From contig CM026426.1 of the NCBI GenBank assembly GCA_014871385.1, positions 57,314,089 to 57,378,088 on the forward strand: DNA of 64,000 bases. The letters run 5' to 3'. The notes under the pieces were generated by a model. The model did not search any database, was not told the origin of the DNA, and saw only the letters and a program-made list of their open reading frames with translations. Position 1 is the first letter of the stretch; each line of letters starts with the position of its first letter. The DNA is from Ceratodon purpureus. Its lineage: Eukaryota; Streptophyta; Bryopsida; Pseudoditrichales; Ditrichaceae. Below, one piece after another: positions 1-25,520 of this stretch. Position numbers and translations under genes: made by a program.

Positions 1-1396
1 ACTCAGATATGGAATGGGGACTCCAGGAGTAGTTAGCACAACCGTTAGATTATACAGTATTTGGAAACCATAGATGTGAAAAGAGATGACTTTCATCTTT
101 TGGTAACTTTTGCTGATGGTATTCACCGTGTGGATTGTAAACAATTTCTGGAATGGAATGCCTTCAAAACAGGGCTCTTCTAGACGAAAACTAGTGTTTC
201 ATCTGATGCTTTCATATTTGTATATTTCGTATTCTTATATGTCCATGCTAACTAGTAAATGTAGTAGTAAATTTCGTTTGAATCTATGAATTATGAATTT
301 TGTATTTTAAAATTATGCAAATGAAGCAAGCATTCCACTTTCTTATTAGAATGTAATAAAATTGTAAAAATATTAGTCAAGGTAGAACGTGAAAGAATTG
401 ATTAAAACTATTGTAATATACATGCTAATCATACAAGGCATACCATGGTTAAAATATTCGCTTCTCATGAATAAATATAAAAAACCCTAAACCTTCTAAA
501 AAATATAAATAATTTGCCATAATAAATGAATTTAATTCTAGAATTCAATACTATTATTTTTAACAATGTACTCCATATATATACTTCAATATACTTATAT
601 ATCATTTTTAGATTTGTATATAGATTTGAATATAGATTATAATTCTAGTATTATTATCATTAATTAAATATAAAATTATAAATGAATATATTAGTATCTT
701 AGTAAACTATACTATATTATTATATAATAAATAAAATATGATATCAACATGTACTTTAAGAATATGATGACAACATTTATGTAAATATGTTTCCAATTAG
801 AGTTTATGAAATTCATTTTCATTGCTAATAGTGTAACCATATTTGATGCTTTAGTCAAATAATTACAAATTATTATTACATAAAAAAAAATGTACATTTT
901 CATCCTTTACAATTGATCATAATTTGTCCACTTTGAAGCTCGAAATTGTGTATTTTTTCAAAACATCCAAAATTGCGTGCAATTTCTTTTAAATAGAATT
1001 TTAATTTATAAACCCTATTTGTTTATTCTATATACGTTAAAAAAGTAGAATATTTCCTACTCATGAATATTTGTAGTTTTGTAGAAATTAAGTTTCTCTT
1101 ATAAGAAACTAATTCGTACAAAAATATTAGATTCTCTTGACCATAATATTAAAGTAATGTAATTGCACCTTAGTAGATAATAATGAATATTTACAAAATT
1201 TTAAATATTTGCTTCTCATGAATAAATATAAAAATTTCAATTCTCTAAAAATTGTTATTAATTTGCCTAGTTAGATTTTGTGCTTGCTCAAGTGTCTATA
1301 CCGTTATATAATATCATATATTAATACTACAACAATGCTGTCCATTGATATAGGACAATACATTTGAATCCATAAAATGAGGATTTTATTTTTCGA

Positions 1397-1410
1397 ATAT
1401 ATATAAAAGA
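1397..1410 (+). promoter_or_regulatory. TATA box of copy A
   Basis: TATATATAAAAG lies about 110 bases upstream of an abrupt change from AT-rich to GC-rich sequence that looks like the start of a 5'UTR. The same string is conserved in copy B. Confidence 0.5.
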
Positions 1411-2842
1411 GTAAGAAAATTAAGTTCCGTTTCTGTATTTGAGAAAACCCAAAAAATATTTGCTGAACGAAACTTAAAATAAAAAGGTAGAAAAAAGTAA
1501 AAAAAAGTGAAACCTGCGGGGACGGGGTAGTGAACCCCGCGGTGACGGGGCCACGGGATATGGCGGCGCGGTCATGGGTCAGTGCGAGGGGGAGGAGCTC
1601 ATCCCCACCGCGACCTCGTCCACAGAGTGTTTCTTTGTTTCCTCCCTTTCTCTGTCTGTGTCTGTGTCTGCGCGCGTTTCTTTGTAGTGGCGGGAATATA
1701 TTCCGTGAGAGACTGTGTAGTAGAGTTGTTTTGCGCGAGTTTTCAGGGCTTCCTCTGCTCCATTTCCTTCCTCTAGAGTGTGTGACTTCTATGTTTGAAG
1801 TACTGTTTGTCTCTAGGGTTTAGGTTTTAGGGTGACGGTTTCAAATGTAAATGCGCGGAGGGAGTTGACAGTGTTTTGCGCTTGAGCTTGTGCTTATTCG
1901 AGTTGTTTCACGGATCTCTGTTAGGTTTTCCTGTGCTGGGTTCTTCCTCGCTCTGTAGGGTTTAGGTGTATTTCATATCTGTCGTTCTTGTGCGAACTTC
2001 TTCGGTGCTCTGTGGAGGCGTGCGGTTTGGATTGGGGTTTCGGGAGGGGTGGAAAACAGTCTTGCGGCGCTAAATATCAGGTGCGTAATTGATCGCGCCT
2101 GTGGTTTCTTTTTTCTTTCAGTTCAATTCCATTGAATATCGCAATTTAGGGTCTTGTCAATTGAGTTTTTTCGTTTTTTTTTTTGTTTCAATTATAATTC
2201 TTTGGCATGATCTCGCTAGTTTAGGATTAGCATCCTGTAATTTTCGTACTGAATTCTGAATTGCGTGTGTCTGTTTATGTTCGTACTCTTTATGTGTTGT
2301 ATGTGTGTTTTCTGTGGAAGAATTCTGTCTTGATCTCGTATTCTGTGTGTGTTCGAATTTAGACTTCTGTTTGTGTTTGAATTATGAATTGGTTCGTCTA
2401 CTGTGTGTGTCTGTTTATGTACGAATTCAGAATTGTGTTCGTGTCCTGTCTGTGTATCTTCGGTTTCCAAATCTGAATAATGTTCGTTTTTGGTACGTGT
2501 GTGTATGTTTGAGATTTAATGTGTGGTTCTCAACAGGATTGTGTGAGTGCATGTGTGTACCATAAGAAAAACAATAGCATATTCCTTGCAGTTAGGTTAA
2601 TTGATGTCGAGGTTGTAGTTATGTTGAGAACAGATTTGCTACGTTGCATTAATTTTGGCGCCAATGTTTTGAGCCATATGTGTATGTGTTATGGTAATCT
2701 GAACGACTTTGCTTATATTAGAATCTTCTGAAAAGGAATCCAATTACATTTGTACTTTTCTCCCGTATTTTTCGGTAGCAATCTTGAACGTTTCTAATAT
2801 TTATCCCATCTTCTGATCCTCTGCAACCATTTCTTTTTGCAG

Positions 2843-2909
2843 GCAAAACACGATTGCCATAATTTCCAAGAGAGACACAGGAGCTAATTAATCTGGAAAT
2901 GGCGGAGAG
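2843..2909 (+). pseudogene. Orphan first coding exon, copy A
   Basis: The acceptor TTTTTGCAG ends at 2,842. The exon runs to a GTATAA donor at 2,910 and contains ATG GCG GAG AG (start at 2,899), as in the intact gene in copy B. A 5'UTR donor (CAG/GTGCGT) sits at 2,081. The next intron begins with the array at 3,052, but no exon coding for the rest of the protein follows. If the promoter works, the transcript would consist of the UTR, three codons and the palindrome array. It is either a by-product of tandem duplication or a non-coding array transcript. Confidence 0.7.
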
Positions 2910-3051
2910 GTATAAAACCAAATGCCAATATCATATACTCCTCATGAAAAAGGCTTGACTGCAGTGCTGCAATGTCATATTCAACAAAAACAGAGAATAA
3001 TGCAATATATTTTTCATAAAACTGACGGAAATTCGATCATAAAAGCCAACA

Positions 3052-3527
3052 GTTTAGCTCGACTCGAGCTAAACTGGAGGTACAACTCTCCTCCACATAC
3101 TGGGAGTATCACATATAGTTTAGCTCGAGTCGAGCTAAACTGGAGGGCTCCCATGCTCAAAGCCCAAGCAGTTTAGCTCGACTCGAGCTAAACTGCAAGG
3201 CTCCCATGCTTAATCCCAACAAGTTTAGCTCGAGTCGAGCTAAACGGCTGCTGCCCTTTCGATGCAGAAGTTTAGCTCGACTCGAGCTAAACTCGTGTTG
3301 CCCTTTGGATACAGATGTTTAGCTCGAGTCGAGCTAAACTTCTGCACCCAAAGGGCAACACGAGTTTAGCTCGAGTCGAGCTAAACTTCTGCCGCCCTTT
3401 GGGTGCGGTAGTTTAGCTCGACTCGAGCTAAACTTATGCTGCCCTTTGGGTGCTTGAGTTTAGCTCGAGTCGAGCTAAACTCATGATGCTCTTTGGATGC
3501 AGCAGTTTAGCTCGACTCGAGCTAAAC
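3052..3527 (+). repeat. Palindrome array A, ten copies, 47-bp period
   Basis: Ten near-perfect 23-bp palindromes: arm GTTTAGCTCGA, one centre base (C or G), then the arm's reverse complement. They start at 3,052, 3,118, 3,171, 3,223, 3,270, 3,317, 3,364, 3,411, 3,458 and 3,505. The last seven are spaced exactly 47 bp. The 24-bp spacers are related to each other (core GCCCTTTGG) and the one at 3,340-3,363 is inverted. The first two spacers match those of array B. Confidence 0.97.
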
Positions 3528-3540
3528 TGCCGTCCGCAAA

Positions 3541-4125
3541 AAGCGGCGCTTTAATAGGTGCTTCCATTTTCGGAATTCTGAGTCCCAGACTCAGAGTACG
3601 CTTACGGTGTCCGCTCTAAAACGTCTGTAAGAAGGAAAGAGAGACACTGCAAATACACCATGACTTGAATCAATGGAAAGCATACAACAAGCAGATATCA
3701 ATGAAGTGTACTGATGATCGGAGAAAACTGAAGAGAAGACGTACAAGAGAAACGGCGCAATACAGCTTCCGCCCAGAAAACAACAACCTCCAAGTGAGCG
3801 CCGAGAGCTCCTACAAGCGAGAGAAGCAAGTGAGTAGAGAAAAGACTTCGACCGGGGACGATTCCAGAGGTCATTCTGTAACGTGTGACCGTTTTCATGC
3901 CGATTCAGTTTTGAAAATAGGCTGGAATCATGCATGACCATTCGACCCTCCACATTTCGGGGTGTGAGAAAGCGCGGGAATTACCACTTTCCACAATTCT
4001 GGGCCCTTTAGATAGATGCAGATGCGAAATATTTGGTGCATTAATTGTATCAATCGGGATGGGTTGGGCACGTCATAGCGCCAGAGAGAATGTTGACTTT
4101 TGGCCCCGAACTTATCATCTTCGAT
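3541..4125. other. Unassigned stretch after copy A
   Basis: Short overlapping open frames on both strands, none with recognisable similarity, splice context or codon character. I see no gene. Confidence 0.5.
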
Positions 4126-4213
4126 CAGGGTTCAGGGTTTAGGGTATAGGGATCAGGATTAAGGGTTTAGGGTCTTAGGTCCAGGGTTAAGGGTTTAGTG
4201 TACAGGGTTAAGG
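4126..4213 (+). repeat. Degenerate telomere-like tract
   Basis: AGGGTTTAGGG-like units with many changes (CAGGGTTTAGGGTATAGGG, then further AGGGTTTAGGG and AGGGTTAAGGG units). It resembles an old interstitial plant telomere repeat (TTTAGGG). The units are too degenerate and too few to mark a chromosome end. Confidence 0.6.
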
Positions 4214-4639
4214 CATTTCTAGGGACATTAAATATCACGTATATGGAATAAAATTAAATCGAAAATTGTTTGAACCTATTTGTATTTCGTGAGTAAGGTT
4301 CATACAGGGAAGTATATCGTTGCAAATATTCATACCTCCATGTACTAGAGTATGTATTTTTGCTCAATTTCATTATTATATATGATGTATGAAATCAAAT
4401 CATTATATGTGAGTTCATGAATAGTTCTTGATAGACCTAGGTAGATATGTTTTTAAATTTAGAATTATTTATTTATTCTACAAATTTAGTCAGATATAAT
4501 TGTCATGTATATATATTCATGTACTTTTATTTATGTCTCTATTTATTTCATAATGTGTTCTTTACGCCGTGAATGGTGTAACTTTGTTCTTTCGTTTCTG
4601 GAACTCTACATCTTAACATGTATATTTTTAATATACATG

Positions 4640-5400
4640 TTAGGATTATAATATGTATAATATAATTATATATTCATTTACAAGTAGGTACTAATATATT
4701 CATTTACAATTTAATGTCCAGTTAAAAATAGTACGAGAATAATTAACTAAAATCTAATGTATACAAATCTTAGAATGATATACAAGTATATTCAAGTATA
4801 TACGAAATACATTGTTAAAAATAATAGTATTAGATTATAGAATTTAATTCATTTCTCATGGCAAATTATATACGTTTTTTAGAAGATTGAATTTTTAATA
4901 TTTAATCATGAGACGCAAATATTTGAACCATGGTATGCCTTGTATGATAGGCATGGGGTGAAAGTACGTTGACCTAAATGTAAGCCTAATATTCTTAAAG
5001 TACATGATAGTATCATAATCAAATTATAATATAATAATATAGTATAGTATACCAAGGCTCTAATATTTTAATTTACAATTTTATATTTAATTATTGATTA
5101 TAATACGAGAATAATAAAACAATATTCAAGTATATATACGAAGTACATTGTTAAAAATAAAAGTACTAAATTATAGAAATCAATTCATTTATTATGGCAA
5201 ATTCTTTATATTTTTAAAAAGGTTTAGGTTAATTATATTTATTCATGAGAAGCGAATATTTAAACCATGGTATGCCTTGAATGGTAGGCATGGAAATTAC
5301 ACAAACCTTAATCAATTCATTAATGTTCTACCTTGAGTTCTATTTGTACAATTTTATTACATTCTAATAAGAAAGTGGAATGTTTGGTTCATTCATTTTT
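4640..5400 (-). repeat. AT-rich repeat, two adjacent inverted copies
   Basis: Read on the minus strand, 5,400-4,980 and 4,970-4,640 match the plus-strand AT-rich tract at about 330-700 and 6,700-7,080, including the shared string GCATACCATGGTT near 4,930 and 5,265. The family thus flanks copy B in both orientations. No reading frame is evident. It may be a non-autonomous element or old duplicated flank. Confidence 0.7.
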
Positions 5401-5761
5401 TAAAAAAAACTCATAAATTATGGATTCATATGAAACGTTTTAAACCAATTATCATAATTATAGTTGTAGTATTAATATATAATATCGGGAAAGGCTCTAG
5501 ATGCTTGTCTAAGCATACAATCCCATTAATCAATTCTTTAATAATAAATTGAAATGACACTTTAAATTAGATCCGGACTTTCGAAAGCCCACATCGGTCA
5601 AAGTCCCGTTACCGAGTCTGGTCAAAGTCCCCTTCCTTACTTTGGAACATTCGGCTTCCCGCCCATGCTGCTTCATAAGCATAAGTTCCTTTGGGCAACG
5701 AAACAGTTGTTTCATTCTTAGTTTCCCTTCTGTTTCATCTACTTGTAGTTCATTTGCTGTG

Positions 5762-6097
5762 ATGAGGAGGTCGGGCGGTCGTTTTAGGGTGTCAAGTTAC
5801 CCGCCAGACGAGTGGGAGGTGGTTGTTTTTCCACAAGGAGTGGAGGAGCTTCGTCCCTGGTTTATGGCTGTGGAACGCGCCCGTGGTCGCGGCGTGGAGA
5901 TTCCCCCGTGGAACCTCATTGCACGCCTAATGCAGCCCGGTGTGGAGTGGGATTGGACTATTGCACATGGTCTAGAGCAACTGGAGATTATGAACGCCTC
6001 CAACATCAAGTTTCCCCTCACCTCCGGCGAGGGCTTCTCTATGCCTGATTCTAATGAGGAGGGGAGCGTGGATTTGGGGAGCCCACCACATGAATGA
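5762..6097 (+). CDS. Hypothetical 111-aa protein
   Basis: A GC-richer frame starting ATG AGG AGG TCG and ending TGA inside an otherwise AT-rich block. The protein has a run of aromatic and charged residues (PPDEWEVVVFPQGVEELRPW near residues 14-33) and an acidic tail. The frame stays open upstream to 5,642, but this Met follows a leader-like CT-rich stretch. About 230 bases downstream, at 6,329, an acceptor-like CTTGCAG precedes the start of duplicated copy B, so this may be the 3' part of a transcript unit also present left of the window. I do not recognise the family. Confidence 0.35.
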   Translation: MRRSGGRFRVSSYPPDEWEVVVFPQGVEELRPWFMAVERARGRGVEIPPWNLIARLMQPGVEWDWTIAHGLEQLEIMNASNIKFPLTSGEGFSMPDSNEEGSVDLGSPPHE

Positions 6098-7209
6098 GTA
6101 GGTGAATTGTTATCTCCTCAAAACCCTTGACCTTGTCCTCAGTTTGATGTTTTCATAATAATAGATTGCGTTTGCTGTATGTGGTGCGCAGCATTTTAAT
6201 GGCTCATGCTGTGTTCGTTCTGATTCTTAGGAGGATGAGTCCTTGCTTTTGACATGCACTTTTCCGTTTTGAACCCTAAACATCATACCATCTGATCCTG
6301 TTTTTCTCTTTTCTCCAGAACTTGCAGGCATCTTCGATATACTTCTACGATTTTACTTTTTGCTGCTATTCAACTCAGATATGGAATAGGGACTCCAGGA
6401 GTAGTTAGCAGGACCGTTAGATTATACAATATTTAGAAACCATAGATGTGAAAAGAGATGACTTTCATCTTCTGGTAACTTTTGCTGATGGTATTCCCCG
6501 TGTGGATTGTAAACAATTTCTGGAATGGAATGCCTTCAAAACAGGGTTCACCTAAACCCTAAACCAGTGTTTCATCTGATGCTTTCATATTTGTGTATTT
6601 CGTATTCTAATATGTCCATGCTAACTAGTAAATGTAGTAGTAAATTTTGTTTGAATCTATGAATTATGAATTCTGTATTTTAAAATTATGCAAATGAAGC
6701 AAGCATTCCACTTTCTTATTAGAATGTAATAAAATTGTAAGAATAGTCAAGATACAACGTTAATGAATTGATTACGATTATTGATTAGGCTTCTCATGAA
6801 TAAATATAAAGAACCATGAACCTTTTAAAAAATATAAAGAATTTGCCATAATAAATTAAGTGAGTTCTATAATTTAATACTCTTTTTTTTAACAGTGTAC
6901 TGCTTATATATACTTGAATATATTTGTATATCATTTTTAGATTTGTGTATACTTGAATAATGATTATTATCCTCGTTTCATAGTCAATAGCTAAAAAAAA
7001 TTTGTAAATGAATATATTAGTACCTTAGTATACTATACTATATTATTATATTATAATTAAATTATGTTACTAGCATGTACTTTAGGAATATGATGATTAT
7101 ATTTAGGTAAATATGTTTCCAATTTGAGTATAGGAAATTCATTATCATTGCAAATAGTGTATTTGAATTTGATGCGTACGCAAATAATTACAAATTATTA
7201 TTACAAAAT

Positions 7210-7930
7210 TGGAAGAAGCATTATTGAATTGATTAAAATTTAGTTAATTCAAAAAAATCAAAAATCACAATCTAATGTAGATTCAGAAATGTATATAAAT
7301 GCAAATACAATCAAAACCGGAAACCAACTTCACATAATGCAAGCATGTTGTGAAGCATTGTAAAATATTACCAATACTTTTCATCAGAACCCTGAAAAAA
7401 CGAGGTCCCTATCCTGTTTAGGTTTCATTGAAACTCACACTGGGTTGGTAACCTCAACCCCATTCATAGTACACATTAAGGGTCATGGTTCTCCAATCCC
7501 ATGTGAGTTATTGGAGCCATCATGGTGAATTCTTCTTAAGGTAAGAAAGAGCAGGTTTACCAAACCATATGGGGTTAACAATATGGAGACTGAATTGCAC
7601 TATCTATCTTTAAAGTAAATTCCTATAACAAGTTATTTTTATGAACCTTTTTATAGGAATTTATAGGAATTTCTCACTTTCATAAAAATAAAATAAACAA
7701 AGGGCCAGTAATATTTAACTCGCAATTCTTACAAATATTAATAATACCATTCAGTGATTGTGATATAACTAAAATTACTATTCCATAATGAAAAACAAAT
7801 TTTCGAATTGCAGTATCAAAGTACATGCTAGTATATGAATTCTGAATTATCAAAATATATGGAATGGCATGGAGTTTATTTGGAATAGAATTATAATTCA
7901 GTATAAATACAGAAAAATTTATATACACAC
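7210..7930. other. AT-rich sequence unique to copy B
   Basis: Extra sequence relative to copy A, within the AT-rich upstream tract. The only open frame (minus strand, 7,680-7,928) is low-complexity and unsupported. I see no gene here. Confidence 0.5.
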
Positions 7931-8654
7931 AATGTATTTCGTATAATACATACCTGAATATATTTGTATATCATTTTAAGATTTGTATATACTTGAATAT
8001 ATATGATTATTCTCGTACTTTAATCATTAATTAAATATGATATTCTAAATGAATATATTAGTACCTTAGTATACTATAATAATTTATTATATTAATGATA
8101 AATTATGATACTAACATGTACTTTAAGAATATGATGAAAACATGTATGTAAATATGTTTCCTATTAGTGTATAGTGAATTCCTTTCATTGCTAATTAGAG
8201 TATTAACTTCATAGATCCAAACTAGGATTATTGTGTTAATTAAATTTAAAGACATCTCATATTCGATTAATATTAGCGAAGATAAAATATACGTTAAAAA
8301 AGTAGAATATTTCCTACTCATGAATATTTGTAGTTTCGTAGAAATTAAGTTTCTCTTATAAGAAACTAATTCGTACAAAAATATTAGATTCTCTTGACCA
8401 TATTATTAAAGTAATGTAATTGCACCTTATTAGATAATAATGAATATTTACGAAATTTTAAATATTTGCTTCTCATGAAAAAATATAAAAATTTCAATTC
8501 TCTAAAAAGTGTTATTAATTTGCCTAGTTAGATTTTGTGCTTGCTCAAGTGTCTATACCATTATATAATATCATATATTAATACTACAACAATGTTGTCC
8601 ATTGATATAGGACAATACATTTGAATCCATAAAATGAGGATTTTATTATTCGAA

Positions 8655-8666
8655 TATATATAAAAG
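8655..8666 (+). promoter_or_regulatory. TATA box of the ParB/methyltransferase-like gene
   Basis: TATATATAAAAG at the AT-rich to GC-rich transition. A GC-rich, CT-repeat-bearing 5'UTR follows (about 8,775-9,342). A 760-bp 5'UTR intron then runs from an AG/GTGCGT donor at 9,343 to the TTTTTGCAG acceptor ending at 10,102. It is conserved in copy A. Confidence 0.55.
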
Positions 8667-10158
8667 AGTAAGAAAATTAAGTTCCGTTTTTGTATTTGGG
8701 ACAACTTAAAAAATATTTGCTGAACGAAATTTAAAATAACAAGGTAGAAAAAAGTAAAATAAAATTGAAACCTGCGGGGACGGGGCAGTGAACCCCGCGG
8801 TGACGGGGCCACGGGATATGGCGGCGCGGTCACGGGTCCGTGCGAGGGGGAGGAACTGATCCCCACCGCGACCTCGTCCACGGAGGTGTTTCACTGTTTT
8901 CTCCTTTTCTCTGTGTGTGTCTGTGTCTGCGCTTGTTTCTTTGGTGGTGGCGGGAATGAATTCCCTGAGAGACTGTGCAGTACAGTTTGTTTCGCGCGAG
9001 TTTTCGGGGCTTTCTCTGGTCCATTTCCTTCCTCCAGAGTGTGTGACTTGTTTGTTTGAAGTAGTGTTGGTCTCTAGGGTTTAGGTTTTAGGGTGATGGT
9101 TTGAAATGTTAATGCGCGAAGGGAGTTCAAAGTGTTTTGCGCTTCAGCTTGTGCTTCTTCGAGTTGTTCCACGGATATCTTTTAGGTTTTCCTGTGCTGG
9201 GTTCGTCCTCGGTCTGTAGGATTTAGGTGTATTTCGGTTCTTTCCTTCTTGTGCGAACTTCTTTCGGTGCTCTGTGGAGGCGTGCGATTTGGATTGAGGT
9301 TTCGGGAGGCGTGGAAAACATTCTTGCGGCGCTGTATTTGAGGTGCGTAATTGATCGCATTACTGGTTTCCCTTTTCTTTCAGTTCAATTCCATTGAATA
9401 TCGCAATTTAGGGTCTTGTCAATTGAGTTTTTTCGTTTTTTTTTGTTTCAAATATAATTTTTTGGCATGTTCTCGCTAGTTTAGGATTAGCATCCTGTAA
9501 TTTTCGTACTGAATTCTGAATTGCGTGTGTCTGTTTATGTTCGTACTCTTTATGTGTTGTATGTGTGTTTTCTGTGGAAGAATTCTGTCTTGTTCTCGTA
9601 TTCTGTGTGTGTTCGAATTTAGACTTCTGTTTGTGTTTGAATTATGAATTGGTTCGTCTACTGTGTGTGTCTGTTTATGTACGAATTCAGAATTGTGTTC
9701 GTGTCCTGTCTGTGTATCTTGGGTCCCGAAATCTGAATTATGTTCGTTTATGGTACGTGTGTGTATGTTTGAGATCTAATGTGTGGTTCTCAACAGGATT
9801 GTGTGAGTGCATGTGTGTACCATAAGAAAAACAATAGCATATTCCTTGCAGTTAGGTTAATTGATGTCGAGGTTGTAGTTATGTTGAGAACAGATTTGCT
9901 ACGTTGCATTCATTTTGGCGCCATTGTTTTGAGCCATATGTTCATGTGTTATGGTAATCTGAATGACTTTGCTTATATTAGAGTCTTCTGAAAAGGAATC
10001 CAATGACATTTGTACTTTTCTCCCGTATTTTTCGGTAGCAATCTTGAACGTTTCTAATATTTATCCCATCTTCTGATCCTCTGCAACCATTTCTTTTTGC
10101 AGGCAAAACACGATTGCCATAATTTCCAAGAGAGACACAGGAGCTAATTAATCTGGAA

Positions 10159-13100
10159 ATGGCGGAGAGGTATAAAACCAAATGCCAATATCATATACTC
10201 CTCATGAAAAAGGCTTGACTGCAGTGCTGCAATGTCATATTCAACAAAAACAAAAAATAATGCAATATATTTTTCATAAAACTGACGGAAATTCGGTCAT
10301 AAAAGCCCACAGTTTAGCTCGACTCGAGCTAAACTGGAGGTACAACTCTCCCCCACATCCTGGGAGTATCACATATAGTTTAGCTCGAGTCGAGCTAAAC
10401 TGTAGGTCTCCCATGCTTAATCCCAACAAGTTTAGCTCGACTCGAGCTAAACTGCTTGGGCTTTGAGCATGGGAGCCGTGCAGTTTAGCTCGACTCGAGC
10501 TAAACTGCTGGGATCCCATGCTCAAAGCCCAAGCAGTTTAGCTCGAGTCGAGCTAAACTGCTGGGATCCCATGCTCAATGCCGAAGCAGTTTAGCTCGAG
10601 TCGAGCTAAACATCTTGGGTATAAGCATGGCATCCCAGCAGTTTAGCTCGACTCGAGCTAAACTGCTTGGGCAATGAGCATGGGAGCCCATCAGTTTAGC
10701 TCGACTCGAGCTAAACTACTTGGGCTTTGAGCGTTGGAGCTGTACAGTTTAGCTCGAGTCGAGCTAAACTGCAAGGCTCCCAAGCTGAAAGCCCAAGCAG
10801 TTTAGCTCGAGTCGAGCTAAACTGCTGGGATGCCATCGGTTTTCTGATTAATAGAATCAACATTTAGCTCGAATCGAGCTAAATGGCTTTGAATTTGTCT
10901 AATGGTAAATGTCTCCTCCTTGCAGTGAGGAGAGAGCAAGGGTAACTGAGGCGCTACGACATTTCTTCAAGCCTGTTCCTATATCTGATTCAGATGACGA
11001 TGACGGGGATGACTCAAGCACATACGAGCCATGGACCTTCAAAGACCCCACGAAGGTCAAACATTGGACTCTGCGATGGGTTGCATACACCCCATATCTT
11101 ACCTTCGCAACCATTTTCAAGGGAGAAGTCAATGATCCCGAGGTCATCGATATGGATACAAAGGTCACCGAGTGTGACAATAAGGGAAAAGACCAAATCA
11201 GGATCCTCTGCTCATCTACCGGGGCTAATCCATACCTCTTCTCCATAGTAGTAGACGTAGCGGAGAACCTCTTCGACCCCATTTCCTTAATGGAAAGTTT
11301 GTCCAATTCACCTTTCGAGGAGATAGTCTCCACGATGAGACAAGAAATACTGGACAAGAGATGGGCAACAAAGGATGGACGAACTCTCGGGGCGAAATCC
11401 CTAGCGTGGAAACTGAGGAATGTTGTCAGCACCCTTACGCTCCGCGCAACGGAGGCAAAGGTGAAGCAGAACCTCGGAAAATCTCAAGTTGACGTTTCTG
11501 GAGTCACAGCAACCGGAAGTCAGATGGGGAGCCAACAGACAGGACGCAGTAGGGGGAAAGCGATTGTTCCATCCCAAAGCCGAGGCGCTTCTGCAACTCC
11601 CACGCCCCACTCACCATTGAAGAAGAAAGGACTCGAGAAGAAAACTGACAAGCCAAAGCCCAAGAAGGACTTGCTCTTATCTGCAGAGGACTTGGCAACA
11701 TGTTTGAACTCTGTTCTGGGGGAACTCCCCAAGGTGAACAAGGCTGGAGAGATCCTGGACTTCGACAACGCCAATCGCATTTACCAGAATTTCTTTTCTG
11801 ATTGCCAGGACGAGTTTGTCTTCAAAACGAATGGGCAACCAAAGAAGTTCAGTGTGGACGTGACGCGGTGCAAGCCCGCACCGGCCGCATGGACAATCCG
11901 TGCATATGAGAAGCGGGGCATGGAGGAGATGAAGAATTACCTGGTCAACATGCCTGATAGGGGTCAAAAGCAAACCCTGTGTCTGATGCCAGACACAAAG
12001 GCACGACCTCAACAAGAGTCGGATCTGGAAGGCTGTGAATTCCACATCATCAACGGGCAACACAGCGTGGCGGCGTCCAAATCTCTCATCGAGGATAACG
12101 CCAGTGAGGAGTTGTTGAGGGACTTCAGGAGGTGGGATGCGTACATCGTGTGGACGAAGGATCATGATAAGCTACGAAAGATCTCAGCATTCTATAATCG
12201 GGTGAACCATCTCGCACCCTTCAAGCCAACTTGGGCGAGCAATATACTTGCCGCTAGAAAAGTGTGGGAGAGGTATGGTAAGCCCCAGAAGAAAAATGCT
12301 GCCGCTGGTGTTGCGGACCGCAGGAGTACAGGTCCGAAAAGTAATCCAGCGTCGAAGACGTACGACGTAAGTTCACTGATTCATTAGCATTAGCAGTTTA
12401 GCTCGACTCGAGCTAAACTTCCTGCAGGAAGTTTAGCTCGATTCGAGCTAAATATTGATAATCTTTTTCGTTTTCATTATTTTGGTATATCTCGATCAAT
12501 TTAGCTCGAGTCGAGCTAAACAGTAGTTCCGAGACAGCATCATCTAAGGTTTCTTCCTGTGCGTATGCAGAACTTTTTGAATGCTATCAGGGAGCGCTTC
12601 GCTATGATCGATGTGGCGAAGCATCAAGCCATGGTGGCGAAGAAGGGAGGGAAGAACACTATCTCCCTAACAAACGAGCTGTTTATCATCACATCCAGTG
12701 ATGAAACATGGGACCTGTGGAAGGAGGTGATCGCGTCTGCGGCATGTACTGGACTCATTGATCCCGACAGCGAACCTCCGCATAAGAAATTCTATGAGAG
12801 GAAGGGGTTCGTTCCGGACAAGGATGGGACGCTTCCGAGGGAGTTCTTCAAATGGCTCGGGAACTTGACAGAGGCAGATCACCAGAAGATGTGTAAGCAC
12901 ATCCTGCATAAGTCTGGGCCAAGTCGGAAGTCCACATATCCGAAGGTGACCATCAAGCAGAATACGAGTGTATTGGAGGACTGCTACTCGATCAAGGAGT
13001 GGGCGGAGCGGAGAAAACGTAAGGCTGTAGCTCAAGTGGAGTTCAACAACATTATTCCAACGCTCCATTTATTCAAGAGAGACGGCCTTGATGTACCCGC

Positions 13101-15016
13101 TTGGAAGCAGTTCAAGAAGACTTACTTTGTCTCTAAGGAGTCGAAGCACGTTCTGCTTGATTGGGGTATTCCAGACTCGTACTGGACTAACTCCAGAGCT
13201 ACACAGTTCCGCAACAAGTCGGCCAAGGATCTCTCCCCATATGCGGTTGAGTTCTTCAAAACCTTCCTGAAGGTTCGACATGCGTTTAAGTGTCCTTCAG
13301 CTGAGATGTGGTTCCTCCCATTCATCAGGGAGCCTCGACTCGCCTTCGGATCTTGGCCCTCCGATATATGGAGGTTGGCGGGCGGCGCACTCACATTCGG
13401 AATCATCGACTTCCGGTTCCTCCCAACCTACAAGACGAGGCAGAACTACACTTTGGAGAACCCCTTCTTCATGGAGTTTTTCAATATGATCGAAGAGTAT
13501 GGGCAGCCCCAGTTTAACGATGTTCGGCACTGGCTTTTCATTTGCGGAGACGATGAGGACTTCGCCCAGGTGCTCACTTGGGTGGAGCGAAACACCTTGA
13601 GTGGTCGCAGAAGAGTCCATTCAGAGTATTTACCCGCTCCTAACGAGCGACTCGGCGGACACCCCCCAAAGAGCAGAATCGCGATGGAACCCGTCAAACT
13701 CCTGTTTCTCATTGATGATAATTTACTTGAGAACGAAGTGTCAACGCCAGAACCTCTGAGCGAGTACAGAACTCCGGACCACCCACTGTACAAGGACAAC
13801 AGGAAGTTCAACGAAAGGAGGTACGCAATGTATCCATCCGAGTTAAGGATGGAGTTCTACCTGCAGGTCCTCGACACTTTCTGCAGTACTGGGGTGGCGG
13901 TTTATCAGCTCTATGCGGGAACGAAGTCCCTCATAGCCGCCGCGGTAAGTTTCCACACTTTAGCTCGAGTCGAGTTAAATCGTTCCACTGTTTTGATCAC
14001 ATGCACCATGTATGCACACACTTCCACACTTTAGCTCGAGTCGAGCTAAACCGTGTTTACCTTGTCTTTGTTTTCTTCAGATGCTCTCGATCTCGTCTTT
14101 CGTGGTCGCGGATGATAGTGACTCTCCTCATATGGTCGAAGCTCAGGCACTTGGATTAACTCTGGACCCAACCGATTTTAGTGTCGACGCTTATTTTGTC
14201 GATAAGGAACGGTTTCCGGAATACGGCAGAGCCGTGCGGAAAGGGAAAGGCAGAGCTGCGGAGGAGGGTGACGATGTTGATCTGGAGGAGGATGCCCCCA
14301 CCGAGGAACAGACCCCCTCCTCCAGTGCTGCGGACATTAGCAATGAGAGCGATGCTCCGCCTTCTGATCCGGTAAGTCAGACAGCATCTGAGGGTGGAGT
14401 GGGGAGAAGACTCGAGTTTCCAGACGTCGACATTACACGTACGGACGATGAGAGACCGGGTTCTGCACCGGAGCTGGGATCCGGAAGTGGGAGAAAGACT
14501 GCCGCTGCGCGAAGTACTGGAAAGCCGGCTCAGAAGAAAAAGAGGGTCAATCCTCCAGCTCGGCAAGCCTCCCCGTTGGGGAGAGCCGCTCCCGATCCGG
14601 ATATTCAAGCTATTCTCGCAGAATTGCAGGCGACCAAGGATAGGAATCAAGCATTACAAGATCGGATGGCACAGCAGGAAAAGGATATAGAGAAGACCGT
14701 GCAGGCGGCACTGCAGAATGTTCTGCAAGGCATGAGTAGTGCCACTCTTTTCCCGAATGCGGGTCCAGTTCTGCCCAATGTCCAGCCGATAGGTAGTGCC
14801 CTGCCTACTTCGCGAGTACTTGAGATTTTGGGCTCCCCTACTGGTGGTGCAAAATTGCCAGAGTCGGATCCGAGTCCCGCATCAGTGCCTGAGCCAAGCC
14901 ATCATTCCACCGACCAGGTCATGCGTGACCGTAGTCCCAGTCCTCCCCGTTCTCCCTCCCACAGTCAGACTCAGGGAGATGCTCCCGAGACATCTTCAGG
15001 TCCCTCCCAAACTTAG
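10159..15016 (+). CDS. ParB-like / DNA methyltransferase-like protein, 4 coding exons, 1,253 aa
   Basis: Coding exons are 10,159-10,169, 10,926-12,366, 12,571-13,944 and 14,081-15,016. Donors are GTATAA, GTAAGT and GTAAGT, acceptors end TTGCAG, ATGCAG and TTCAG, and all phases join. The start is ATG GCG GAG AG/T (MAESEE). Residues about 380-388 read INGQHSVAA, a motif like the G-x-H/R-x-x-A site of ParB/sulfiredoxin-fold and DGQHR proteins. A conserved-looking stretch with FYNRVNH and WASNILAARKVW follows. At about 681 DWGIPDSYW stands where beta-class methylases have DPPW. At about 917 VLDTFCSTG resembles SAM-binding VLDPFCGSG, with LIAAA and VVADDSD downstream. Residues 960-1,253 are acidic and proline-rich with one coiled coil (about 1,140-1,180). 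ParB-methylase fusions are known in bacteria and phages. Motif IV is not canonical, so activity is uncertain. All three introns carry palindromes. Confidence 0.72.
10312..10884 (+). repeat. Palindrome array B, eleven copies, 53-bp period
   Basis: It lies wholly within the intron after the fourth codon of the ParB/methyltransferase-like gene. The 23-bp palindromes start at 10,312, 10,378, 10,430, 10,483, 10,536, 10,589, 10,641, 10,694, 10,747, 10,800 and 10,862. Most steps are 52-53 bp, with 29-30-bp spacers related to GGGATCCCATGCTCAAAGCC. Spacers 3-4, 6-7, 7-8 and 8-9 are the reverse complement of the others. The last copy has A at its first position and T at its last, so the pairing is kept. 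Confidence 0.97.
12396..12521 (+). repeat. Three palindromes in the second palindrome-bearing intron
   Basis: Copies at 12,396-12,418 (perfect), 12,431-12,453 (centre T, last base changed) and 12,499-12,521 (first base changed). All lie in the intron 12,367-12,570. Spacing is irregular, unlike the arrays. Confidence 0.95.
13958..14051 (+). repeat. Two palindromes in the third palindrome-bearing intron
   Basis: Copies at 13,958-13,980 (one internal arm mismatch) and 14,029-14,051, both preceded by the same CTTCCACA-like context, in the intron 13,945-14,080. Confidence 0.93.
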
Positions 15017-15118
15017 ATTTTTTGAACTCGGAATTTTGTAGATGAGGTGTTAATACCGGAGTAGTTCACTGAAATGTGCATTTTGTACCAAAACGATTGT
15101 AATTAATACAAATGGGCT

Positions 15119-15141
15119 GTTTAGCTCGACCCGAGCTAAAC
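15119..15141 (+). repeat. Palindrome between genes 1 and 2
   Basis: One copy with a single mismatch near its centre, 103 bases after the stop of the ParB/methyltransferase-like gene and upstream of an acceptor-like TGCCCAG at 15,222. It may lie in an intron of the next transcript. Confidence 0.9.
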
Positions 15142-15276
15142 CGTTCAACTGTTTACCAATCCCTTCTATGTCAGCTTCATTGATCACTCTCTGATGATTC
15201 TATAGTTCTCTTGCAATGCCCAGGTCACGAAGTGAATGAGGAAGTGGAAGATCTTCGGATCGTGGATGATGTTGTC

Positions 15277-16390
15277 ATGGCCCAAACTGCGGATGAGCCT
15301 GGACGCACAAATATGGATTTAGATGTCACGGCCCAGTGTGCTCTGACCTTGCCAATGTGCGTAGAGGTCTTTCCTAGCGATCAACCTCAGAATTCATTAG
15401 GGTCGATGGGTCCTGTGGAGGATCGGGATGTTGTAGAAGGCCAAGCCGAGGATGCTCAGGTATTTCATCTATCATTATATCTCGTTGCACTATTTCCTTC
15501 GAGAATGACTTGCCTTGCGACTGTCCTTATTGTATCATTCGTATAACCCCGTCCTAGTATAATATAGTAATGTCCATCTGTCATCGGTATTTCCTCTCCA
15601 GGTGCGCGAGGCATCTGGATGTGACGTAAGTTCTAGTGAAGAATTGAGTCCTGTCCCGACAAGACCTCAGAGTGGTTGGTTGAACGTTGTCCTCGACCTG
15701 AATGGAATACTATGCTCCAGTACTCCTAATTGGCCTGGAAAATCATTCGTTAGCCATGACCTTAGCATCCACTCAGCGTCCAAGCCAGCAGCCGTGGGCC
15801 CCAAGCTTGTTTGTGTCAGGCCCAATTGCGCTGATTTCCTTCGTCGGTTGTCAGCATTTGCAACCATAACCGTCTGGAGTTCGATGAAGACTTCGACGAC
15901 AAAAATGATCTGCGACTATCTGTTCGGTCCGATTCGTCCTGTCTATCCGCTCAGAATTCTAGGTCAAGAGGACTGTCAGAGAGTTCCTATGGGCGTAGAT
16001 TTTCGAGGTCGTCCGGTATATATGAAGGAACCCGGGACTCAGAAGGACATCTTCCTTAAGCCGATGTCCGATGGTCTCTTTCGTAAATTTGGTGGCATAT
16101 ATTCCGAAGCCAACACCATTTTTATCGACGACAGCCCGATCAAGCACTGTCAGAATAATTCTTACAATGTCCTTCTACTCTCCACTTGGAACAACCAGAA
16201 TCCCGATGCCGCAGATGATCGTTTTTTGTTGTCGAAACTTTTGCCATATCTTGTAGACCTACACCACTTTGTGGGGACAATCGCTAGATTCAGGGCCGAG
16301 CGTTCGATTGGGAAGAAAATGTATTATGATGACTGTTCTACCTGTGAACAATACGCTAAGATTAACGAGGCAATTAGTCGTAGAGCATAA
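15277..16390 (+). CDS. FCP1-type HAD-family protein phosphatase, two exons, about 323 aa
   Basis: Exons are 15,277-15,459 and 15,602-16,390. The donor is CAG/GTATTT, the acceptor CTCTCCAG, phase 0. The catalytic FCP1-homology domain fills exon 2: motif I DLNGIL (about residue 93; plant FCP1-like proteins often have DVNG or DLNG in place of DxDxT), motif II TVWSS (about 151), the lysine of FLKPMS (about 214) and motif IV IDDSP (about 236-240). Family members remove phosphate from Ser/Thr, often next to proline. No signal peptide or membrane segment is seen. The first exon may begin at 15,223 after an acceptor-like CCAG, which would add coding sequence from an unseen upstream exon. The start at 15,277 is simply the first in-frame ATG. 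It shares strand with gene 1 and begins 260 bases after its stop. Confidence 0.75.
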
Positions 16391-16731
16391 TTTGGCATGA
16401 TTTTGGTTCTCTAGTTTGTTAATAGACATTTCTAAACTGCCGCGGAGCTATTAGTATATTGTACATCTTAACTACTTGCGTAATCTTTGTATCCAGACTA
16501 CTCCTTTTGTAATACGAAGATCATATTTCTTTCTTGATCTACTGTGCCCCTTACGACGAACCCTTGTCCATTGCTGAATTATTGGTGGATGTATGTTTCT
16601 ATTCGCTTTGTGTATTGCAGGATAATGCATGTCGAGCCTCTGTGGATTCTTTGAATTATGCTTATGGCTGCGGGCCCTCTCTACGTAGCAGAGGGCTTCT
16701 GTTGCAATCCGTTGCAACAGCGCAGTCCACG

Positions 16732-17450
16732 ATGGACTATTCAACTATGGCTGTCGACGAAGGGGTTGTGGACAGCCCGGTTAACCTGTCCGTTCCCAAG
16801 ACCCTGAAATCCCCTTCTCCTATGTGGCCACGGACCGTACTGCATGTTCTATCTCCGAAACGACAGAGTTCTACCCCTACGAAGCGTGCTCTTTATAACA
16901 ATGTGGTGGACATGCCGTCACCGCCACCGGCAAAGGTTGGTTTTCATTCCTCAGTATTCACTCTTCATTCCTTTCTGATGTTTCATTCTTGTAAGTTTCT
17001 TTCATGATGTTTCATTCTGATGTCCTTATTTTAGCTCGAGGCCACCTAAAATGATTGGTCTTCTTATACTCTCGTGTAGGTCTAGTTCTAGCTTATGTAG
17101 GCCTCCTCGTTCAAGGTCCGTTCGACATTTACAATTGCACTCAGCAGTTTAGGTCGATTCGACCTAAACCGAAATCTCTTCCCAATGCTAATTTATCCCC
17201 TTTGCAGATGCCGAGGCTGCGATCAACAACTACTGGATCCAGGGCAAGGAAGTCCGCCGACTCCCACTCTAAACCATCCAGTACCCGTCGCCACTCTCTG
17301 CCAGAGTCAAGCATCGGTGACAGGCGTAGGCAGAAGTTGCAACGTCTTCTTGATAGTCCAATGATGCAGGTTGAGGGAATGTCGTGGACACGTCAGCGCC
17401 AACGGGAATTTGTCAAGTCAAGAATTGAGGCTTACGGAGGGACTCCATAA
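16732..17450 (+). CDS. Basic SP/TP-rich protein, two exons, 148 aa
   Basis: Exons are 16,732-16,935 and 17,208-17,450, phase 0, donor AAG/GTTGGT, acceptor CTTTGCAG. An acceptor at 16,620 and an open frame from 16,621 mean the exon begins upstream of the chosen Met. Ser/Thr-Pro sites include DSPV, KSPSP, LSPKR, STPTKR, MPSPP and DSPM, two of which fit a cyclin-dependent kinase consensus. The second half is rich in Arg, Ser and Lys and ends in a short helix-like basic stretch with a tryptophan (MSWTRQRQREF). It is probably nuclear and perhaps binds nucleic acid. No known family is recognised. Its intron holds a GGTC-type palindrome, and the FCP1-type phosphatase gene lies just upstream. Confidence 0.55.
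17030..17169 (+). repeat. Variant palindromes (GGTC type) in the SP/TP-rich gene intron
   Basis: 17,147-17,169 is a perfect 23-bp palindrome with arm GTTTAGGTCGA, where the usual arm has GCTC. Both arms have changed together. 17,030-17,050 is a worn copy of the ordinary type (TTTAGCTCGAG then CACCTAAA). Confidence 0.85.
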
Positions 17451-17754
17451 CCATATAGAGGATACTATGTACTGTATAGCAATGGCGCAGACAATATAGA
17501 CGATTATAAGACACCTCTGTGTTATTTCAATGTAATTATGTTTTGAATAAAACGATTGATCTGTTTGTCAAGTTTTCTCGCATGCTATTTTTGCCTCATT
17601 GTCTTGCACACTTTTTGTGTTATTCAAATTTCCGAATGTAATTTATGTGAGTGGACATTGCCTTTTATTGAAACCTTGGTTTAGAAAAGGTAACGGATAG
17701 TTACTACTAAAATTACAGGGGACGTGGTATATTCTTTTTCCTTGTTTATATTGC

Positions 17755-17879
17755 GTTTAGGTGTGATCGACCTAAATGACTTAATCATCATCTCTATTTA
17801 AACATGTTTTTAATGAATCAATGAACATTACTAAGTTTTCTCCTGTATGTTCGTGCATTTAGGTCCACTCGACCTAAAT
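17755..17879 (+). repeat. Two worn GGTC-type palindromes between genes 3 and 4
   Basis: Copies at 17,755-17,777 and 17,857-17,879. The outer arms TTTAGGT and ACCTAAA are kept, with a few inner mismatches. They lie 72-196 bases upstream of the next start codon, in intergenic or 5'UTR sequence. Confidence 0.85.
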
Positions 17880-17950
17880 GACATGGGCCTCATTGTTCCT
17901 TTAAGGTGTTTTTAATGATTCAATATTGATTTCCGCAAGATTGAAGTAAA

Positions 17951-18494
17951 ATGGAGATGACGAATGTCGCCATTTCTCTGCACTCTAATTTCCCAAAATC
18001 AAGAATATCTCCCAAAATAACGAATATGGTGTTACAACCAGATGAGGTGCAATTTGTTGCCTACAGGAACCGAGTGGAGCGTTGCCAATCTCGACTTTGG
18101 GTGGATAAAGAGTCCCAAAATAGGACTGCAGTAGCACTAGCTCAAATTCTGTCACGGCATGAAGGTGTAGCTCTCGCTTCTCAGCCTACAATGGCACATG
18201 TTCAGTTAGAGATTGCGAACAATGTGCTTAAATCGATTGGTAAGAGTCACTACAAGGGATTCTGTGTCCTAATTGATAGAAAGTTGATAGAATTCTGTCA
18301 ATCGTGGTGTCAATTAGGGTACCTTGATTCGGTCACATATTTGACAGTTTTCTGTAGGTTTGACTGTCATCTTGGACAAAATTACACGTAGGATTCCTCG
18401 TCCTCCAGGATGGTTGCCAGATTGGATTACCGCAGCCATGTCAGCTTCCATGTTTACCTTCTTCATTTACTTATCGTTGGGGTGGATAGTGTAA
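17951..18494 (+). CDS. Small protein with C-terminal membrane anchor, two exons, 141 aa
   Basis: Exons are 17,951-18,239 and 18,358-18,494, donor G/GTAAGA, acceptor TTCTGTAG; a split GGT codon joins the frame. The unspliced frame runs to 18,391 and would lack the anchor. The product starts MEMTNVAIS, has a polar middle (residues 30-95, with LAQILSRHEG and VQLEIANNVL helices) and a basic proline turn (TRRIPRPPGW). It ends in a 23-residue hydrophobic segment (119-141, ending LSLGWIV) right at the C terminus, the layout of a tail-anchored protein. It is the last gene of the four-gene cassette. The family is not recognised. Confidence 0.55.
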
Positions 18495-24075: not shown

Positions 24076-25520
24076 CGTAGTGAGTCGTGCGCATCGTTCA
24101 AATTAGATATCTGTGCCACGTCCAAGTACTAAATACACATCTCCACAACTACTTCGCATTACTCTCTGCTGGACAAAAAACCTGCTACAACGTCGGGAAA
24201 GTAGTACAGTCCATTGTCCAGGCGGCTAGTCTTTGCGGACACCTCGTTCTTTCCCTCAATGCCTCTCAATTTAGATTCTATCAGGGGGACTTCGCTTGAT
24301 TTACCAGTCTCACAAGGATTACTACTACGAAGGTACATTACAACAAAGGAGAGTGAAGGTCTGAGAGTCTTACAGCCAGGTAGTCACTCCCGTTTGCTGA
24401 CGCAGGAGTTTGTCGTTTTCAGCTATGGTTTCATACCTTTTCAGTGCGTATTCAGGTACCTTCATACTCAAACATTCAACGTTTGCTCATGGTATGAACA
24501 AACAACCGAAGTACTCTTTGTGATCGGGTACAATTACACCCAACTCTATTTTGCTCTACTGAATACTTCGTGAAGTTTGTTGAAGGCAGCCACCCTTGCC
24601 TGTGTGCATTTATATTTTCCTTCTGAAGCGTCATTCGTGGGCCAGGAAACAAGTGCGGTAATCGACATATAATCGAGCAATTCACGGTATTCACTGCGCC
24701 CTTCAAACCCTAATCAGGCAGAACTTCGTAGTCACCCATATCACTCATTGCTTGTATTTATGAAATATTATCGTGGGTGATTTTGTGGGTTTTCTTGAGT
24801 CACCTCAAACTCCTTACAGTCCCTGAAATTGGGATAGGGTTTAGATTAGGTGTTATTACATTTTTGTTACAGTGTTATTGTCATTTGATTGTCAATTTCA
24901 TTTTGTTGACAGAGCAGTACGGCATCTGCTCTTTTAATTCAGTTACTGCTATGTCTATCAAAGTCATATAAGTTCAATGACCTGGACAATTCATGTAGGT
25001 CTACTTGTGAGGCATTAGTTATAGAGTTCTGTCACAACACAGTTAGGAGTGCAATGTGGTTTGTTTCTTATAGGTAGAATATGTTCTCCGGCGGTGTACT
25101 GATACGAAGTGATTTGTCTGTGTCAACTAGAAAGGCCGATTCAGCTGTGGAGGGTCTTCAACACCATCACTCAAGTTCTTTATCTGGATTGTAATCATAT
25201 TGCCCTCTGTGAGTAACCCACCGAGAGAGACGTAGTACTTATTCTGTTTCACGAATTATATTCTCTACAGAAATTAGTGTCTCACATATCAGGAAAGTGC
25301 TCATGCGTGGAAATCTGAAACACTTGACTCAGAGTTAATTGTATTCTAGTGTCTTGTCGAAGAATTAAATAGCTTTATTTGATCCACAGTAGTATGTGGA
25401 GATGTTTGTAGATGTGAATGCTTAGACATCTCGGTATCACTTTGTTTTTCACACACATAAAGTCGATAACTGGAGCAATCTTCGTCTGCAGATACTACAC
25501 GGAGAAAATTCTGAGGGAAA
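24076..25520. promoter_or_regulatory. Shared upstream region of the divergent CACTA genes
   Basis: About 1.4 kb lies between the outermost plausible exons of the TNPA-like (minus) and TNPD (plus) genes, with only short unsupported frames. By position it should hold both promoters. No array of repeats is obvious. Confidence 0.4.

What the first reader, a model, noticed from the sequence alone, without database searches (positions are those of the whole stretch)
3052..17879. A 23-bp palindrome repeated about 30 times, confined to the introns and gaps of one gene cassette
Seen directly: arm GTTTAGCTCGA, one free centre base, then its reverse complement, near-perfect in most copies. There are 10 in array A, 11 in array B, 3 and 2 in the other introns of gene 1, one before gene 2 and four worn or variant copies around genes 3 and 4. 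By eye none falls in an exon and none occurs in the other 46 kb. Such perfect dyads next to spacers that vary argue for selection on the palindrome (a dimeric DNA-binding site, a modification site, or an RNA hairpin) or for a very active repeat mechanism.
Basis: seen in the sequence. Interest (0 to 1): 0.92.

Follow-up and report, generated by a model that had tools for sequence, protein, structure and literature searches.

The report
Jumping gene family with private palindromes
The repeated palindrome belongs to a large young "jumping gene" of a moss, and each of three related jumping-gene families read here carries its own version of the palindrome in matching non-coding places, which suggests a private address label read by a protein that the element itself makes.

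Summary
The "cassette" is a TIR DNA transposon of the moss Ceratodon purpureus, with 27-bp inverted repeats, 392 ends in the genome and a DUF7869-type transposase. An exact 4-bp target duplication was found in 12 of 13 end pairs examined. The exception is the window's own copy, a 25-kb recombinant on the V sex chromosome whose middle array is a hybrid of two others.

The palindrome is family-specific. Two related families (transposases 56% and 47% identical) carry different palindromes in the transposase leader and just before the first long exon of gene 1, and in family 2 also in introns 2 and 3. Cross-counts are 35/0/0, 0/21/0 and 0/0/20. Of seven differing arm pairs, five changed on both sides and still pair. 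Family 2's palindrome has 14 exact places in 362 Mb, all within 32.2 kb; its gene-1 exons were predicted from that layout before the DNA was fetched.

Best reading: binding sites for a dimeric element-encoded protein, working like VANC/VANDAL anti-silencing in an unrelated transposon. Binding and function are inferred.

The parts
1..18033 (+). Part of the transposon inside the window. The element is 25,182 bp; its left terminus lies 7,149 bp upstream of base 1 (G000:C6:57306940 = L006:2852).
   Evidence: Copies end at these bases with identical 27-bp TIRs
18007..18033 (-). Right 27-bp terminal inverted repeat ATCTCCCAAAATAACGAATATGGTGTT
3052..3527 (+). Array A: 10 palindromes. Hybrid: the first three spacers (43, 30, 29) are of the array-B kind, the other six are 24-bp spacers of the array-1 kind; read as a product of unequal exchange.
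10312..10884 (+). Array B: 11 palindromes in intron 1 of gene 1 (10170-10925)
12396..12521 (+). Three palindromes in intron 2 of gene 1 (12367-12570)
13958..14051 (+). Two palindromes in intron 3 of gene 1 (13945-14080)
15119..15141 (+). One palindrome between gene 1 and the phosphatase part; it falls in an intron of the fused gene model P0001 (by comparison of its protein with the window)
17029..17169 (+). Worn site (17029) and perfect G-arm variant GTTTAGGTCGATTCGACCTAAAC (17147) in an intron-like gap between gene-3 exons
17755..17879 (+). Two right-subterminal G-arm sites, starting 279 and 177 bp from the right end
10159..15016 (+). Gene 1: exons 10159-10169, 10926-12366, 12571-13944, 14081-15016; 1253 aa, no Pfam family above E 0.1 for the whole protein
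15224..16390 (+). NIF/FCP1-like phosphatase exons (15224-15459, 15602-16390), fused to gene 1 in NCBI model P0001
   Evidence: PF03031 E=6.8e-14 for 15602-16387; P0001
16621..17450 (+). Gene 3 exons (16621-16935, 17208-17450); not searched against family libraries
   Evidence: P0010 and P0016 carry translated parts
5762..6097 (+). Small ORF (111 aa) with a second copy in the left flank at L006:9387-9722; no Pfam match for either

Best explanation
Each palindrome is a binding site for a dimeric, sequence-specific protein encoded by the same transposon family. The sites are stationed in the non-coding DNA of the element's own genes: the leader of the transposase, intron 1 and later introns of gene 1, and, in variant form, near the ends. 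Many sites in arrays make a high-density landing platform that lets the protein recognise copies of its own family and no others. The most likely use is to keep those genes expressed against host silencing, as VANC proteins do for VANDAL elements. Shown here: transposon, positions, family specificity in the three families read, mostly complementary change, lower variability than surroundings, recombination within arrays. Inferred: that a protein binds, which protein, and anti-silencing as the outcome.
For: Mutual exclusivity: the F1 element and the stretches read of F2 (L040, L047) and F3 (L042, L045, L046) hold 35/0/0, 0/21/0 and 0/0/20 sites of the F1, F2 and F3 motifs. Matching places: transposase leader in all three; array just before the first long gene-1 exon in all three; introns 2 and 3 in F1 and F2. 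The F2 layout was predicted from palindrome positions before the DNA was fetched and held. The F2 motif has 14 exact places in 362 Mb, all in C3:20391-52600; F3 has 809, reversed control 0. Of 7 arm pairs that differ between F1 internal and the other three forms, 5 changed on both sides and still pair; 2 (outermost and innermost, both F3) do not. Arms differ at 6/154 positions against 74/515 in spacers in the array shared by copies E2 and E4 (p=1.9e-4); dispersed sites vary in 9/220 columns against 128/1136 (p=6e-4). In the F2 gene-1 array, of the seven sites six are perfect and one has 3 mismatches, while the four long spacers of its 125-127-bp units are only 59-80% identical. The VANC parallel comes from passages of PMC5735166: motifs in non-coding regions, in introns of VANC21 and VANB21 and upstream of VANA21, different motifs for VANC6.
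Against: No binding, expression, methylation or small-RNA data. Gene 1 matches no known family and no structure could be predicted. Array homogeneity can come partly from exchange between palindromes rather than selection (C/G centre flips in 4 of 7 E2/E4 sites), and the F2 gene-1 array and F1 arrays are tandem repeats at least in part. Only one F2 copy and one F3 copy were read, in pieces, and F2's outer end beyond gene 1 was not found. F1 has a second arm type at its ends, so one reader may not explain every site. One of the 50 listed places, C1:15616581, lies outside any copy.
Confidence: 0.55

Rival explanations
1. The transposase itself binds the palindromes, as TNPA-like proteins bind subterminal repeats (recalled): to assemble ends for transposition and to repress its own promoter. 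Internal arrays would be titration or autoregulation sites.
For: Subterminal G-arm sites near both F1 ends; an array sits at the transposase leader in all three families read; motif divergence goes with transposase divergence (56% and 47% identity).
Against: Most sites are kilobases from the ends, in or before gene 1; subterminal sites of F1 differ from internal ones at pair 7/17; no F2 palindrome at up to 7 mismatches in L041, which holds the last 0.95 kb before the F2 end.
Confidence: 0.25
2. The palindromes act as RNA: repeated hairpins in introns and leader that affect splicing, nuclear retention or small-RNA production.
For: Most sites lie in introns or a likely 5' intron; complementary pair changes are also what an RNA stem would show.
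Against: The sequence, not just pairing, is held constant at 20-35 sites per element and switches as a set between families; F1 sites also stand 177-279 bp from the right end and 518-828 bp from the left end, where transcription is uncertain. No Rfam family reached its gathering score.
Confidence: 0.1
3. No function: a self-maintaining repeat. Template switching at near-palindromes perfects the arms, and exchange between neighbouring palindromes homogenises and inverts units.
For: Inverted spacers, centre base G 47, C 41, A 3, T 0 in 91 array sites, and C/G flips between orthologous sites with unflipped spacers; hybrid array A and the missing target duplication of the window copy. Mutations that extend identity between arms of imperfect inverted repeats are generally attributed to template switching (abstract of PMC3820800 in the listing).
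Against: Does not explain the same sequence at single sites kilobases apart in later introns, matching positions between families, absence from exons (0 of 42), or the F2 leader, where site spacing runs from 45 to 165 bp and, apart from one 22-bp spacer pair 86% identical, spacers are at most 58% alike.
Confidence: 0.1

Closest known systems
VANDAL elements with VANC anti-silencing proteins (Arabidopsis; passages of PMC5735166, abstract of PMC10398659)
   Same: Element-private short motif at high density in the element's own non-coding DNA, in introns of accessory genes and upstream of the transposase; different motif for a different VANC; motif arrays gained and lost by repeat formation.
   Different: Transposase is DUF7869, not a Mutator-like one; 27-bp TIRs and 4-bp target duplications; motif is a 21-23-bp palindrome, not a 9-bp directional motif; accessory protein has no Pfam match and is fused to an FCP1-like domain; no functional data here.
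Sola DNA transposons (review PMC9033089, table passage naming Physcomitrella Sola1)
   Same: TIR element with 4-bp target duplication (the Sola figure is recalled) in mosses.
   Different: Sequence relationship of DUF7869 to Sola transposases was not tested; I recall no accessory gene or palindrome arrays for Sola.
CACTA/En-Spm subterminal repeats bound by TNPA (recalled)
   Same: Many copies of a short element-specific site, some of them subterminal.
   Different: No CACTA termini, 4-bp not 3-bp duplication, no Transposase_21 match in the proteins searched; arrays are internal and intronic. A CACTA-type gene set stands next door at 25.8-30.8 kb.

Membership tests
TIR DNA transposon | Perfect terminal inverted repeats | tested here: met
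   27/27 at both ends of the window copy and in 20 of 20 further ends, chosen among exact matches; 392 ends genome-wide at 3 or fewer mismatches, control 0
TIR DNA transposon | Target site duplication | tested here: met
   Exact 4 bp in 10 of 10 TIR pairs picked at 17.5-19 kb spacing and in E1 and E3; not in the window copy (tgac/acaa), read as a recombinant
TIR DNA transposon | Own transposase | tested here: met
   946-aa ORF with DUF7869, E=1.5e-42; the 48 best-scored of 1782 candidates are 98-100% identical, 35 of 48 without stops. Transposase activity is inferred
VANDAL/VANC | Mutator-like transposase (VANA) | tested here: not met
   Only DUF7869 found in the transposase
VANDAL/VANC | Dense family-specific motif in non-coding parts of own genes | tested here: met
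VANDAL/VANC | Protein binds motif and removes DNA methylation | not testable with these tools
   Needs EMSA, ChIP and bisulfite data
Sola | 4-bp target duplication (recalled) | tested here: met
Sola | Sola-type transposase sequence | not tested
   No Sola reference sequence at hand; DUF7869 occurs in 0 papers of the library
CACTA/En-Spm | CACTA termini, tnp2 transposase, 3-bp duplication | tested here: not met
   Termini AACACC, 4-bp duplication, no Transposase_21 in the element proteins searched
Satellite or MITE | Repeat independent of these genes | tested here: not met
   49 of the 50 places listed (of 3393) lie in stretches homologous to the element

The most novel reading that the evidence does not exclude
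A second, independent anti-silencing or self-recognition system in plants: a non-Mutator DNA transposon group in which an accessory protein carrying an FCP1-like (Pol II CTD phosphatase type) domain is tethered as a dimer to arrays of palindromes inside the first introns of the element's own genes, and licenses their transcription. Protein and palindrome diverge together as lock and key, so that each family frees only itself.
Probability: 0.25. Interest if true: 0.9.

Novelty: new variant of a known kind. Interest (0 to 1): 0.78.

Why it matters
How selfish DNA recognises itself and escapes silencing is known in detail for few plant elements. Here one moss genome holds at least three families with a matching layout and three mutually exclusive palindromes, a ready-made natural experiment on how a DNA-binding protein and its target sites change together. 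The best-scored transposase copies are 98-100% identical, so family 1 is young. In the capped list (all of C1-C5 and C6 up to 56.6 Mb) 17 of 31 end pairs lie on C6, the V sex chromosome. Physcomitrium patens, easy to engineer, has a homologue of gene 1 (P0017) and of the transposase (P0041).

Tried and rejected
Pfam and NCBIfam on gene 1, also exon by exon at lax thresholds: nothing above a curated cut-off apart from the FCP1 domain of fused models. A motif seen by eye, I-N-G-Q-H-S, resembles ParB/DGQHR-type proteins, and a later stretch resembles DNA methyltransferases; both are recalled resemblances without tool support and carry no weight here. Solved-structure searches gave only weak, unrelated hits (best E 0.059 for the gene-1 profile, 0.087 for the transposase). 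Viral contigs: no exact palindrome and no gene-1 relative. Rfam at gathering threshold and tRNA scan of the window: none. Homologue searches found gene 1 only in Ceratodon purpureus and one Physcomitrium patens protein (17 and 15 hits; only the 8000 best candidates were scored). Considered and rejected: satellite or MITE; gene family without transposition; CACTA membership; pure tandem-repeat origin.

Limits of the counts. The lists of 3393 palindrome places and 392 ends show only the first 50 and 100; pair statistics come from those (31 pairs under 45 kb, 23 of them 17.6-19.9 kb). Homology ends: the left end was seen in 2 of 4 other copies (E2 and E4 stretches do not show it), the right end in 4 of 4, within 7 bases. 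Variation tests use 4 or 5 copies per region and drop gapped columns and the centre base. In one search only site pairs with both flanks at 72% identity or more were counted, and in array 1, where spacers resemble each other, some pairings are not unique. cross-counts use 2 mismatches for F1 and F2 and 1 for F3. The 1-in-1000 figure assumes independent units and is not used. Never answered, so not known: genome-wide search with gene-1 exon 3, with transposase P0068, and the genome count of the G-arm variant. My first look for gene 1 beside the F2 leader found none in 8.5 kb; it lies about 28 kb away.
Full report
What is in the window. A spliced model of gene 1 gives a clean 1253-aa protein; the sites lie outside its exons. 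A phosphatase-like NIF/FCP1 domain follows and is fused to gene 1 in NCBI's gene model P0001.

Where it comes from. Gene-1 homologues are Ceratodon purpureus proteins, 16 of 17 hits, plus one Physcomitrium patens protein. The window is G000:C6:57314089-57378088 in a 362-Mb assembly. C6 is 110,524,308 bp, the length given for the contig of proteins named KC19_VG, hence the V sex chromosome (inference from the name).

It is a transposon. Stretches of four other copies, E1-E4, were compared with the window and its left flank. On the right, homology stops at window base 18033 in 4 of 4 copies, within 7 bases; on the left at L006:2852 in the 2 copies whose stretches show that end. Both ends carry a perfect 27-bp inverted repeat, AACACCATATTCGTTATTTTGGGAGAT. 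The repeat has 192 + 200 places in the genome at 3 or fewer mismatches, with 0 in the reversed control. Of 31 end pairs under 45 kb among the 100 ends listed, 23 are 17.6-19.9 kb apart. Ten such pairs were checked, and 10 of 10 have an exact 4-bp target duplication; E1 and E3 also have one, the window copy does not. A minus-strand ORF near the left end is the transposase candidate: DUF7869, E=1.5e-42. The 48 best-scored of 1782 candidate copies are 98-100% identical and 35 of the 48 have no stop.

The window's copy is recombinant. It is 25.2 kb, has tgac/acaa in place of a target duplication, and carries a duplicated unit of about 7.3 kb. Its array A starts with three spacers of the array-B kind and goes on with six 24-bp spacers of the array-1 kind; its left neighbourhood repeats that of array B and its right one that of array 1. 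The simplest account is unequal exchange between arrays of two copies.

Where the palindromes are in the whole element. Array 1 (8 sites) lies just upstream of the transposase start codon, behind what looks by eye like a splice acceptor. Array B lies in intron 1 of gene 1, and further sites in introns 2 and 3, between gene 1 and the phosphatase exons, and in a later gap. Near both ends are sites with a G-arm, TTTAGGTCG...CGACCTAAA, at 518-828 bp from the left and 177-279 bp from the right end. None of 42 sites overlaps assigned coding sequence, which is 35% of the element. Genome-wide there are 3393 places at 2 or fewer mismatches. Of the 50 listed, 49 lie in copies of the element. The exception, C1:15616581, has no other element sequence around it.

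Selection and recombination. At ten dispersed sites over 4-5 copies, arms vary in 9 of 220 columns against 128 of 1136 in other non-coding columns (p=6e-4). In the array shared by copies E2 and E4, most of whose spacers cannot be matched with those of the window, arms differ at 6 of 154 positions and spacers at 74 of 515 over the seven sites counted (p=1.9e-4). At the same time 4 of those 7 sites have a flipped C/G centre while the spacers keep their orientation, and over 91 array sites the centre is G 47, C 41, A 3, T 0. In arrays, therefore, palindromes seem to be exchanged or inverted among themselves. Dispersed sites 12396, 12499 and 15119 show no centre change in the five copies aligned; 12431 varies between T and G.

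The decisive comparison: related families. A transposase 56% identical stands at C3:53134. Its leader holds palindromes of another sequence, ATTCAACTCGANTCGAGTTGAAT: 8 dyads against a shuffle mean of 0.125 and maximum of 2 in 200, 9 sites at 2 or fewer mismatches, 45 to 165 bp apart. Apart from one pair of 22-bp spacers, the spacers there are at most 58% alike. Its end shares GAATATGGTGTT with ours. A third family, 47% identical in transposase, sits inside a family-1 copy on C6; its leader holds an array of TTTAGCTCANNNTGAGCTAAA, and a second array stands in front of its gene-1 homologue (29% and 41% identity in two pieces, E=2.7e-20). Against family 1, seven arm pairs differ in the three other forms; five changed on both sides and still pair, two at the edges of the F3 site do not. 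The motifs do not mix: 35/0/0, 0/21/0, 0/0/20. The F3 motif has 809 exact places, control 0, again in clusters about 7 kb apart, for example at C2:19210169-19210839 and C2:19217737-19218592.

A prediction that held. The F2 palindrome has 14 exact places in the genome, all in C3:20391-52600. Their spacing looked like array B, intron 2 and intron 3 of gene 1 on the minus strand. I wrote that prediction down, then fetched the stretch. A gene-1 homologue (27-38% identical to P0001 over four aligned pieces) fills those gaps: an array before exon 2, two sites in intron 2, four in intron 3, one further on, then the FCP1-like domain. The first intron-3 site follows a GTAAGT donor by 18 bases; the protein alignment itself runs some 36 bases past that donor, across the site. 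In this array six of seven sites are perfect and one has 3 mismatches, while its first four spacers, 101-104 bp each and plainly old repeats, are 59-80% identical. So these palindromes outlast the repeat units that carry them.

How it probably works. A symmetric site, constant at 20-35 places in an element, replaced as a set in related elements with mostly complementary changes, and kept at matching places in the element's own genes, is what a dimeric, element-encoded DNA-binding protein would require. The closest described behaviour is that of VANC proteins, which bind dense motifs in non-coding parts of VANDAL elements, including introns and the region upstream of the transposase, with a different motif for a different VANC (passages of PMC5735166; abstract of PMC10398659). 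This element is not a VANDAL: transposase, termini and duplication differ. The binder may be the gene-1/FCP1 protein or the transposase. RNA hairpins and a function-free repeat remain possible but explain less.

Novelty. DUF7869 appears in no paper of the library. Searches for Ceratodon purpureus with palindrom-, with genome and DNA transposon, with sex chromosome and transposable element, and for DNA transposon, palindromic repeats, intron, moss and anti-silencing listed no paper whose title or shown abstract describes this; those papers were not read. Most subscription journals are not in that library. I file it as a new variant of a known kind, element-private motif arrays, in an unrelated transposon group.

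Noticed in passing
window 20088-30813: A CACTA-type gene set (Transposase_21, DUF4218, DUF4216) with a minus-strand gene beside it lies next to the element and carries none of the palindromes.
   Followed up: no
L039:901-1100 (C1:15616581): A lone perfect palindrome with a half copy some 65 bases upstream, the half copy flanked by AAGAAGACT on both sides, near ORFs that look like a HIT-type host gene (recalled resemblance); it may be element DNA captured at a repaired break.
   Followed up: partly
C1:18085541-18085930: F3-type palindromes at a strict 41-bp period, mostly with CAG or CTG centres, unlike the 25-bp period read in L045.
   Followed up: no
window 46818-47650: Reading frames that look like a decayed pre-SET/SET-domain protein (recalled resemblance).
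   Followed up: no
window 4730-5393: Segments of the AT-rich region at 320-785 recur here in inverted orientation, so the duplicated unit has an inner rearrangement.
   Followed up: no
C6:72360667-72362166 (L042): A family-3 element is inserted in the transposase gene of a family-1 copy: related families nest in one another.
   Followed up: partly
P0039: A transposase homologue 60% identical, from an ENA contig of unknown organism, has the translated palindrome NLARLELN in an N-terminal extension, so the F1 palindrome may also occur in a more distant relative.
   Followed up: no
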